A stretch of DNA of 43,845 nt, from assembly GCA_005773635.1 (NCBI GenBank), contig SXHN01000038.1:1-43845 (forward strand), in the 5' to 3' direction. Source of the stretch: Actinomycetota bacterium. Its GTDB lineage: Bacteria; Actinomycetota; Acidimicrobiia; IMCC26256; PALSA-610. Shown piece by piece: positions 37,057-39,469 of this stretch (position 1 is the stretch's first letter; the number at the start of each line of letters is the position of its first letter). The notes beneath the pieces were generated by a model. The model was not told the DNA's origin. It saw only the letters and a program-made list of their open reading frames with translations, and made no database searches. The translations under genes and the position numbers were made by a program.

Positions 37057-37476
37057 ATGCAGGCACGCCACGAGGAATTCAGCCTTGATACCCAAGGCGA
37101 CGGCGAAATCCAAGATGTCACGAGCCTTGCGCAAAAAGTCATCGACAACTCAGGTATCCGCGACGGCCTTTGCACGGTGTTCATTGCCCACTCCACATGC
37201 GGTGTGACAACGATCGAATACGAACCGGGTTGCAACGCAGATCTCAACCGAGTTCTTGAAGACGTCGCCCCGCAGCACGATCGTTGGGAACACAATGAAA
37301 TCAACGCCGATACCAACGGCCACTCCCACGCCCGTGCCGGGCTCATTGGGCCGTCGGTCACCGTTCCTTTCGCACAAGGCGAAATGATGCTTGGCGTCTG
37401 GCAAAAAATCGTGTGCATCGATTTCGACGACCGTCCTCGGGTGCGGCGTCTCGTCGTGCATCTGCTCGGCGCCTGA
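37057..37476 (+). CDS. YjbQ family protein (secondary thiamine-phosphate synthase type)
   Basis: The 139-residue protein matches the YjbQ (UPF0047) family. DGLCTVFIAHSTCGVTTIEY contains the conserved His-Ser/Thr-x-G segment. HNEINADTNGHSHARAGL and IGPSVTVPFAQGEMMLGVWQ are diagnostic, and VRRLVVHLLG closes the protein. The family has reported thiamine-phosphate synthase side activity, but its main role is unsettled. ATG 37057 follows GAGGAG. Tandem repeats of two different kinds lie on both sides of the gene. Confidence 0.93.
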   Translation: MQARHEEFSLDTQGDGEIQDVTSLAQKVIDNSGIRDGLCTVFIAHSTCGVTTIEYEPGCNADLNRVLEDVAPQHDRWEHNEINADTNGHSHARAGLIGPSVTVPFAQGEMMLGVWQKIVCIDFDDRPRVRRLVVHLLGA

Positions 37477-37479
37477 TCG

Positions 37480-37539
37480 ATCACTCCCAGGCCCGTCACT
37501 CGCAGTTCTGTCACTCCCAGGTCTGTCACTCTCGGCCGG
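37480..37539. repeat. Four 15-base tandem repeats
   Basis: Units begin at 37480, 37495, 37510 and 37525: ATCACTCCCAGGCCC, GTCACTCGCAGTTCT, GTCACTCCCAGGTCT and GTCACTCTCGGCCGG. They share the (G/A)TCACTC(C/G/T)C core. The last unit overlaps the 3' end of the leftward zinc-ribbon gene, whose stop TGA (37526-37528) falls within it. The repeat probably arose by slippage; a regulatory role is unproven. Confidence 0.75.
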
Positions 37540-37738
37540 GCTCCAACCGGTCACCTGCAGCACCGCACCAACGACACGTCACTGCCTCAATCGTTTCTTC
37601 GAGTAGCTCTTCCTCGTCGATCGACAGCTCACCGCCGACCGTAAAGTGATGAAAGGCGCGAGTTCGGCGCGTCGCAACTACGTCGAATCTGGTCAAATTG
37701 CCACACCCCGAACATCGATAACGAGTCGGGGACTGCAT
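37526..37738 (-). CDS. Small zinc-ribbon protein, unknown
   Basis: From ATG 37738 the protein is 70 residues with two zinc pairs: CSGC near residue 9 and CRWC near residue 57, within YRCSGCGNLTRFDVVATRR and AVTCRWCGAAG. A strongly acidic stretch (GELSIDEEELLEETIE) lies between. The family is recognisable as a small actinobacterial zinc-ribbon protein of unknown function, possibly interacting with nucleic acid or protein. A longer frame to 37864 would overlap the fusion nuclease start. It is divergent from that nuclease, with 75 bases between starts, and the two may be co-regulated by the paired SOS-like boxes there. Confidence 0.72.
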   Translation of the reverse strand: MQSPTRYRCSGCGNLTRFDVVATRRTRAFHHFTVGGELSIDEEELLEETIEAVTCRWCGAAGDRLEPGRE

Positions 37739-37774
37739 GCGTTGACAATACCGCGCCTCCCTTTCACGGGCGTA

Positions 37775-37788
37775 CGAACGTTTGTTTG
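37775..37788. promoter_or_regulatory. Near-match to LexA (SOS) box, copy 1
   Basis: CGAACGTTTGTTTG matches CGAAC-N4-GTTCG, the actinobacterial LexA palindrome, at nine of ten fixed positions (T for C at the ninth). It lies 26-39 bases before the ATG of the DNA repair-type fusion nuclease and 37 bases from the divergent zinc-ribbon start. Confidence 0.45.
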
Positions 37789-37806
37789 GCTCGGAGGTGT
37801 ACGATG

Positions 37807-37820
37807 CGTACGTATGTTCG
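37807..37820. promoter_or_regulatory. Near-match to LexA (SOS) box, copy 2
   Basis: CGTACGTATGTTCG matches CGAAC-N4-GTTCG at nine of ten fixed positions (T for A at the third), with the spacer GTAT fitting the R-N-R-Y preference. It overlaps the start codon of the fusion nuclease (ATG 37814) and lies 32 bases (three helical turns) from copy 1. Confidence 0.45.
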
Positions 37821-39469
37821 GCACCCAGCAACGCAGCTTCGACGACCTTGGCACCCCGCTCCACGAAGTCGCGTTCGTCGTCGTCGATCTCGAAACCACG
37901 GGTGGCTCGGCCAACGCCGACGCGATCACTGAGATCGGCGCGGTGAAAATGCGCGGCGGCGAGCTCCTCGGGCGGTTCGAAACGCTCGTCAATCCTGGCG
38001 TCGCAATACCGCCGATGATCACAGTGCTCACCGGAATTACCGAAGCCATGGTCATGCCAGCGCCCAAAGTGGGCGAAGTGATTCCAGCGTTTTTGGAATT
38101 TCTAGGTGATGCCGTCATTGTGGGCCACAACGTGCGCTTCGATATTGGGTTCCTTGATGCTGCGCTACGCAATCTCGGTTACTCCACGCTCACGAACCGG
38201 CGCACCGACACACTCGCGCTCGCGCGCCGTCTCGTGCGCGACGAAACCCCCAACTTCAAACTCGCCACACTCGCTCGGCATTTGCGCGTCGCCACCGAGC
38301 CCAACCACCGAGCGATGGCTGATGCGCAAGCAACCGCCGAGGTGTTTCACGTGCTGCTGGAGCGCGCGGCATCGTTTGGCGTCTTGGGGCTCGACGATCT
38401 TCTCGCCGTGCCCTCAATGCATACGCACCCAAGCGCGCAGAAGCTCGGCCTGACCGCGAAGCTGCCGAGATCGCCCGGTGTGTACATATTCCGTGATCGA
38501 GCAGGCCGCCCGCTCTACGTCGGCAAAGCAACAAATCTGCGTAGCCGCGTGCGTTCATATTTCTCGGGCGACGACCGACGCAAAATTCCCCAACTGCTTC
38601 GAGAAACTGCCGCGATAGATCACGTGGTGTGCAGCGACCCGTTGGAAGCCGCGGTGCGCGAAATTCGCCTCATTCAACGTTGGCAACCGCGGTTCAATCG
38701 CCAAGGCAAAGACACCAAGAAATACAGCTACGTCAAGCTCACCCATGAACGATTTCCGCGTGTCATCGTCACCCGAGCTGTGAAGCCCGGCGATGGTATC
38801 TACTTAGGTCCGCTGCCATCATCTTCGATGGCGCACCTCGTGCGTGAAGCGATTGAGACCGCGGTGCCGTTGCGGCGCTGCACTGTGCGTATCGGCAAGC
38901 GCACGGAATTACCTGCATGCGACGCGCCTTGCACCAGCGCTCAGCTCGGTGTCGCAGCATGTCCGTGCTCAGGGTTGAGTGACGAGCACGCCTACGCCGA
39001 TGCGGTCGCGCAAGTACGTGCCGCACTCTGCGAGGCAATGCCCGAATTGCTGATCGATCCGCTCGAGCGACGCATGCATGCTCTAGCGCGTTCCGAGCGT
39101 TACGAAGAAGCAGCAGCCACCCGCGATCGCCTCGCCGCGCTCACCCGAGCGCTGCGCCGCCGCAATGCCGTCGATGCGATTCGCGCGGTGCCATATCTCG
39201 AAATGCGACGCGACGACGGCAGCCGCGCCGAGTTTCGCTATGGGCGCCTGATCATTGCAGCGGGCCCCGGCAACGACGGCGAGTTCATCAATGCGCCGTC
39301 TCTCGATATCCCCGTGCGCCCCGACGAAATTGATGAACTACTGATCGTCGCCAACGCATTCGCCCGAAGCGCGCGCGCCTGGCACGTCACCCAAGTCGAT
39401 GGTGAATACGCTTCACAATTACCCAACGTTGCGAGCTTCGAGCCGGTCCGTGCCCGCGCTCGTCGTTAA
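37814..39469 (+). CDS. DnaQ exonuclease fused to UvrC-like GIY-YIG nuclease
   Basis: The 551-residue protein joins two nucleases. Residues 1-190 are a DEDDh 3'-5' exonuclease like DNA polymerase III epsilon: DLETTG with Asp25 and Glu27, HNVRFD, and HRAMADAQAT. From about 215 comes a GIY-YIG domain with GVY at 222-224 and YVG at 235-237, as in UvrC and Cho. It then has a UvrC-like cysteine group (Cys356, 369, 373, 383, 385), which may hold an iron-sulfur cluster, and a UVR-motif segment (HALARSERYEEAAATRDRLA). UvrC's RNase H-like and HhH parts are missing. Actinobacteria commonly have this fusion. ATG 37814 is chosen because the upstream open frame overlaps the divergent gene. Its end overlaps the convergent gene by 51 bases. 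Confidence 0.92.
   Translation: MFGTQQRSFDDLGTPLHEVAFVVVDLETTGGSANADAITEIGAVKMRGGELLGRFETLVNPGVAIPPMITVLTGITEAMVMPAPKVGEVIPAFLEFLGDAVIVGHNVRFDIGFLDAALRNLGYSTLTNRRTDTLALARRLVRDETPNFKLATLARHLRVATEPNHRAMADAQATAEVFHVLLERAASFGVLGLDDLLAVPSMHTHPSAQKLGLTAKLPRSPGVYIFRDRAGRPLYVGKATNLRSRVRSYFSGDDRRKIPQLLRETAAIDHVVCSDPLEAAVREIRLIQRWQPRFNRQGKDTKKYSYVKLTHERFPRVIVTRAVKPGDGIYLGPLPSSSMAHLVREAIETAVPLRRCTVRIGKRTELPACDAPCTSAQLGVAACPCSGLSDEHAYADAVAQVRAALCEAMPELLIDPLERRMHALARSERYEEAAATRDRLAALTRALRRRNAVDAIRAVPYLEMRRDDGSRAEFRYGRLIIAAGPGNDGEFINAPSLDIPVRPDEIDELLIVANAFARSARAWHVTQVDGEYASQLPNVASFEPVRARARR

What the first reader, a model, noticed from the sequence alone, without database searches (positions are those of the whole stretch)
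37739..37822. Two near-LexA boxes in the promoter of a DnaQ-UvrC-like fusion nuclease and a zinc-ribbon partner
Two 14-base sequences (37775-37788 and 37807-37820), each with one mismatch to CGAAC-N4-GTTCG, occur 32 bases apart in a 75-base divergent promoter. The chance of two such matches in so short a stretch is very low. One box overlaps the nuclease start codon. The fusion has exonuclease and UvrC-like nuclease parts, so DNA-damage control is plausible, and the divergent zinc-ribbon gene would be a new SOS member.
Basis: partly seen in the sequence, partly recalled or inferred. Interest (0 to 1): 0.62.

Follow-up and report, generated by a model that had tools for sequence, protein, structure and literature searches.

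The report
SOS switch before a repair nuclease
Two binding sites for the DNA-damage repressor LexA lie between a DNA-repair nuclease gene and a small zinc-binding protein gene, and the same kind of site stands before this nuclease gene in most of its close relatives, so cells very probably switch the nuclease on when their DNA is damaged.

Summary
In detail: two 14-mers (37775-37788, 37807-37820), each one mismatch from CGAAC-N4-GTTCG, lie in and at the edge of the 75-base gap between divergent genes. Alone they are only mildly unusual; comparison makes them convincing. The host lexA promoter carries four such one-mismatch boxes, and recA promoters of the family carry exact ones. Of 59 Acidimicrobiia-type loci of the fusion gene, 49 have an exact box in its promoter and 8 more (this one included) a one-mismatch box. 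All 51 exact boxes in 325 kb of those loci sit in that promoter; 20 uvrC promoters have none. Exact boxes also occur in 28 of 60 orthologs from other families of the phylum, but in 1 of 48 loci titled mostly as Actinomycetes. The gene is of a known kind, a DnaQ-exonuclease/Cho (UvrC N-terminal) fusion; its conserved SOS control appears undescribed. The zinc-ribbon gene is real and conserved but unnamed. In four related species without the fusion an exact box remains about 45 nt before the zinc-ribbon start, so it is probably a LexA target there; here that is less certain. No binding or expression was measured.

The parts
37775..37788 (.). LexA box 1, CGAACGTTTGTTTG (one mismatch, GTTTG variant as in the host lexA promoter)
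37807..37820 (.). LexA box 2, CGTACGTATGTTCG (one mismatch, weak), overlapping the fusion start codon; same position in the congener G001 (CAAACGTATGTTCG)
37790..37803 (.). Apparent remnant of a third box (CTCGGAGGTGTACG); the congener has CGAACGGGTGTACG 17 nt before its box 2
   Evidence: inference from two sequences
37814..39469 (+). DnaQ-type (DEDDh) exonuclease fused to a Cho/UvrC-type GIY-YIG nuclease with UVR motif
37526..37738 (-). Conserved 70-aa zinc-ribbon protein, divergent partner
37800..37805 (+). Candidate -10 element TACGAT of the fusion promoter (leaderless start at or near 37814)
   Evidence: sequence reading; inference
37746..37751 (-). Candidate -10 element TATTGT of the zinc-ribbon promoter (leaderless start at or near 37738); TANNNT is conserved there in homologs

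Best explanation
The 75-base gap is a divergent SOS operator-promoter. LexA dimers bind box 1 and box 2; box 1 covers the -35 position of the nuclease promoter and abuts that of the zinc-ribbon promoter, box 2 covers the nuclease start. When DNA is damaged, RecA on single-stranded DNA triggers LexA self-cleavage and the nuclease is derepressed, the zinc-ribbon protein probably with it. The nuclease would then act like E. coli Cho: with UvrA/UvrB it would nick on the 3' side of lesions that UvrC handles poorly, and its own DnaQ-type domain could trim from the nick. Shown here: motif identity with the host lexA boxes and the family's recA boxes, conservation, placement, invariant catalytic-type residues. 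Inferred: LexA binding, induction, co-regulation of the zinc ribbon in this genome, and the repair chemistry.
For: Host lexA promoter with four one-mismatch boxes and family recA promoters with exact boxes; exact boxes at the starts of dinB, dnaE2 and radA of the same genome. Boxes at the fusion promoter in 29 of 29 relatives with upstream DNA; 49 of 59 loci exact and 8 more with one mismatch; 51 of 51 exact boxes in 325 kb fall in this promoter; 28 of 60 orthologs in other families; shuffled expectation near zero; none in 20 uvrC promoters. Zinc ribbon: exact box kept in four genomes without the fusion. DEDDh and GIY-YIG residues invariant in 14 orthologs. LexA of Streptomyces venezuelae binds tCGAAC-N4-GNNCGa, and the GTTT variant in its lexA promoter is a validated site (PMC9380542).
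Against: The boxes of this genome are weaker than those of most relatives, box 2 in particular. Two Acidimicrobiia loci (L096, L097) have no box and 47 of 48 loci titled mostly as Actinomycetes have no exact one, so the control is not universal. About 13 zinc-ribbon genes away from the fusion have no box. The recA promoter of this genome lies beyond a contig end and could not be seen. No binding or expression data.
Confidence: 0.86

Rival explanations
1. The boxes control only the nuclease; the zinc-ribbon gene is an independently expressed neighbour with its own leaderless promoter.
For: The box follows the fusion where the zinc ribbon is far away or absent (L036, L038, L058, L091, L098-L109), and about 13 zinc-ribbon genes away from the fusion have no box. 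The pair is also neighbours in Nocardioides and Jiangella without any box.
Against: Four species of two genera without the fusion keep an exact box at -45/-46 of the zinc-ribbon start, where no other gene start could use it; in this window box 1 abuts the -35 position of the zinc-ribbon promoter.
Confidence: 0.35
2. The boxes bind another repressor with a similar palindrome, not LexA.
For: No binding was measured; a motif match alone cannot name the protein.
Against: Same motif, centre preferences and tandem spacing as at lexA and recA of the same family, and the regulated gene is a DNA-repair nuclease.
Confidence: 0.05
3. The boxes are chance matches or leftovers without function in this genus.
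For: The number of one-mismatch matches in the window is not above chance, both boxes here are imperfect, and a third box looks decayed.
Against: Conservation in dozens of genomes confined to this promoter; the host lexA operator itself consists of one-mismatch boxes; the congener G001 also keeps two one-mismatch boxes.
Confidence: 0.06

Closest known systems
DnaQ(epsilon)-Cho fusion proteins of Mycobacterium tuberculosis and beta-proteobacteria (NCBIfam PRK07883 group; the locus name Rv2191 is from memory)
   Same: Same domain order, exonuclease then UvrC N-terminal-like nuclease; the family model NF005907 is passed; described in PMC518961 and PMC1839093
   Different: No LexA control found reported: the one paper naming both Rv2191 and LexA does not link them, and an M. 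tuberculosis mitomycin C/SOS-box study does not mention the gene in its main text
Escherichia coli Cho (damage-inducible UvrC homolog)
   Same: GIY-YIG nuclease resembling the N-terminal half of UvrC and damage-inducible (PMC1839093)
   Different: No exonuclease part; the fusion here has an N-terminal DEDDh domain, and the operator is of the actinobacterial type
LexA regulon of Streptomyces venezuelae
   Same: Same operator tCGAAC-N4-GNNCGa, with a GTTT variant as a validated site in lexA (PMC9380542)
   Different: Its main text names no UvrC-like or DnaQ-like target

Membership tests
Actinobacterial LexA (SOS) regulon | Operator of the host LexA type (CGAAC-N4-GTTCG) in the promoter | tested here: met
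   Two one-mismatch boxes; host lexA promoter has the same type and degree of mismatch
Actinobacterial LexA (SOS) regulon | Operator conserved before orthologs in relatives | tested here: met
   29 of 29 relatives with upstream DNA; 57 of 59 Acidimicrobiia-type loci with at most one mismatch
Actinobacterial LexA (SOS) regulon | Binding by LexA and induction by DNA damage dependent on RecA/LexA | not testable with these tools
   Needs experiment
Actinobacterial LexA (SOS) regulon: the zinc-ribbon gene | Operator kept at the gene when no other gene could use it | tested here: inconclusive
   Exact box in 4 fusion-less genomes of one family (L063, L064, L065, L069); none in about 13 other zinc-ribbon loci away from the fusion
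DnaQ-Cho fusion (PRK07883) | Score above the curated family cut-off | tested here: met
   NF005907: 556.5 bits against a cut-off of 454
DnaQ-Cho fusion (PRK07883) | DEDDh and GIY-YIG catalytic residues present | tested here: met
   D28, E30, D113, H168, D173 and Y227, Y238, R246/R248, E286, N298 (numbered from 37805) invariant in 14 orthologs; their roles are assigned from general knowledge of the families
DnaQ-Cho fusion (PRK07883) | 3' incision with UvrA/UvrB and exonuclease activity | not testable with these tools
   Needs purified protein
Known zinc-ribbon sequence families (for the 70-aa protein) | Match above a curated Pfam or NCBIfam cut-off | tested here: not met
   No family at E <= 0.001 in Pfam or NCBIfam; only sub-threshold zinc-ribbon hits when the alignment members are scanned
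Known zinc-ribbon folds (for the 70-aa protein) | Clear structural match to a solved zinc ribbon | tested here: inconclusive
   Foldseek best E 1.2; second look best Z 3.8 (AcrVIA2), then NrdD 3.0 and MCM 2.5

The most novel reading that the evidence does not exclude
The zinc-ribbon protein is a so far undescribed SOS protein of Actinomycetota that works in the damage response itself, for example by helping the DnaQ-Cho nuclease or by acting on DNA or RNA polymerase, and its LexA control can outlive the nuclease.
Probability: 0.35. Interest if true: 0.62.

Novelty: new member of a known kind. Interest (0 to 1): 0.46.

Why it matters
The role of the DnaQ-Cho fusion does not appear settled in the literature that could be searched. 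Conserved LexA boxes before it in many lineages of the phylum place it in the DNA-damage response, suggest that SOS control was lost in some Actinomycetes or gained several times elsewhere, and give a clear prediction (induction by mitomycin C). They also point to an unnamed 70-aa zinc-ribbon protein as a candidate SOS protein.

Tried and rejected
Chance as the explanation of the boxes: the raw count in the window allows it, conservation excludes it. Promoter calling: the sigma-70 scan found nothing, so the -10 elements rest on the position of TANNNT alone. A start for the fusion at ATG 37804, well spaced from GGAGG at 37793-37797: out of frame with the nuclease. Restriction of the box to Acidimicrobiia, suggested by the named loci, was dropped when other families of the phylum also showed it. 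Fold of the zinc-ribbon protein: no Foldseek match at E <= 0.001, only weak second-look matches, no sequence relative in the PDB (best E 0.056). Literature: no paper found that bears on LexA control of this gene in Acidimicrobiia; the E. coli Cho paper PMC122214 is not held.

Full report
What is there. The window is contig C11 of a 3.56-Mb draft genome whose relatives are titled mostly as Acidimicrobiia. Between a minus-strand gene starting at 37738 and a plus-strand gene starting at 37814 lie 75 bases. They hold CGAACGTTTGTTTG (37775-37788), and CGTACGTATGTTCG (37807-37820) runs across the second start codon.

Chance. One-mismatch matches alone are not rare: 3 in the window against 3.9 in shuffles. 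With a matrix trained only on lexA and recA promoters of other genomes of the family, box 1 is the top site of the window (15.6 bits) and box 2 the fifth (10.5); 1 of 40 shuffled windows has two such sites within 60 nt. The pair by itself is suggestive, not decisive.

The host motif. LexA is encoded at C111:12824-13444. Its promoter holds four one-mismatch boxes, one of them CGAACGGGTGTTTG, the same GTTTG variant as box 1. The lexA promoters of most relatives show two to four boxes, and all 8 family recA genes with a complete start and upstream DNA have an exact box, as has a ninth (G004) whose recA is in two pieces. The host recA is cut by a contig end, so its promoter is not visible. In the same genome exact boxes stand at the starts of dinB, dnaE2 and radA; further exact boxes lie before a RecA-like open frame at the end of C76 and near an HNH protein on C9.

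The genes. The plus-strand gene is a DEDDh exonuclease fused to GIY-YIG and UVR parts, a clear member of NCBIfam NF005907, with the expected catalytic residues invariant in 14 orthologs. Such fusions were noted before in M. tuberculosis and in beta-proteobacteria (PMC518961, PMC1839093). The minus-strand gene encodes 70 aa with two invariant CxxC pairs. AlphaFold2 gives a confident model (mean pLDDT 91) with two long strands forming a hairpin between the CxxC ends. It has no Pfam or NCBIfam assignment, and solved structures give only weak matches or none.

Conservation of the boxes. All 29 orthologs with upstream DNA among 30 loci from relatives have a box with at most one mismatch, mostly exact. 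Of 59 Acidimicrobiia-type loci from two searches (some genomes occur in both), 49 have an exact box; of the other ten, eight have one-mismatch boxes in the promoter and two (L096, L097) have none. All 51 exact boxes in 325 kb lie between -150 and +10 of the fusion start, in 28 different 14-mers, so the consensus is kept while the free positions vary. Upstream regions of uvrC from 20 related genomes contain none. Across the 80 loci, 27 have an exact box against a shuffled mean of 0.05. Among 80 further orthologs, 16 of 20 from other Acidimicrobiia and 28 of 60 from other families of the phylum have an exact box, with sharp lineage structure: f36 6 of 6 and f59 3 of 3, but f46 0 of 8 and f58 0 of 6. 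Of 48 loci titled mostly as Actinomycetes (Geodermatophilus, Nocardioides, Actinomadura and others) only one has an exact box (L119). Whether this is loss in Actinomycetes or several gains was not tested with a tree.

The zinc-ribbon gene. It is divergent and adjacent in most Acidimicrobiia loci. Its relatives stand beside the fusion also in Nocardioides and Jiangella, which lack the box, so the neighbourhood does not depend on LexA control. Most homologs have a TANNNT at -11 to -16 from the start, as expected of leaderless transcripts. In G041, G050, G055 and G056 no fusion was found, only uvrC. There the gene that follows the fusion in this window precedes the zinc ribbon in the same direction, and an exact box remains at -45/-46 of the zinc-ribbon start although the bases around it differ. 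This suggests that LexA controls the zinc ribbon itself in that family. About 13 other zinc-ribbon genes away from the fusion lack a box, so the control is not general.

Mechanism. The candidate -10 of the fusion (TACGAT, 37800-37805) lies between the boxes; box 1 covers its -35 position and box 2 its start, and box 1 abuts the -35 position of the zinc-ribbon promoter (reading of the sequence). Tandem boxes 16-17 nt apart recur in relatives and in lexA promoters. The congener G001 has such a pair here, and the window seems to keep half of the inner box at 37790-37803. LexA binding and damage induction are inferred, as is a Cho-like 3' incision followed by exonuclease trimming.

Verdict. The protein family and the LexA operator are both known; the link between them was not found in the literature that could be searched. 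That library lacks most subscription papers and supplements were not readable, so an earlier report cannot be excluded.

Noticed in passing
L020:1-190 and L023:1-190 (starts of G000:C60 and C72): Two contigs begin with nearly the same sequence (141 identical bases, then close similarity), holding the exact box CGAACGTATGTTCG just before a minus-strand open frame that runs off the contig; it may be the start of a repeated mobile-type gene. No Pfam match for the 47 aa visible.
   Followed up: partly
L076 (G053:C30): Beside a zinc-ribbon gene with an exact LexA box stands an exonuclease-only gene (about 200 aa) without the UvrC-like part: a split or shortened form of the fusion.
   Followed up: no
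L014:2551-2564 (G000:C21:17050-17063): An exact LexA-type box lies between a GGDEF-EAL gene and a luciferase-like monooxygenase gene.
   Followed up: no
L012:529-542 (G000:C9): An exact LexA-type box lies between a release-factor-like gene and a gene with a weak HNH endonuclease match.
   Followed up: no
L005 and L175 (lexA promoters of the host and its congener): lexA is preceded by four one-mismatch boxes in this genus, against two or three boxes, one of them exact, in other genera of the family.
   Followed up: no
window 37057-37476: A YjbQ/UPF0047 family gene lies next to the zinc-ribbon gene, converging with it, here and in many relatives.
   Followed up: no
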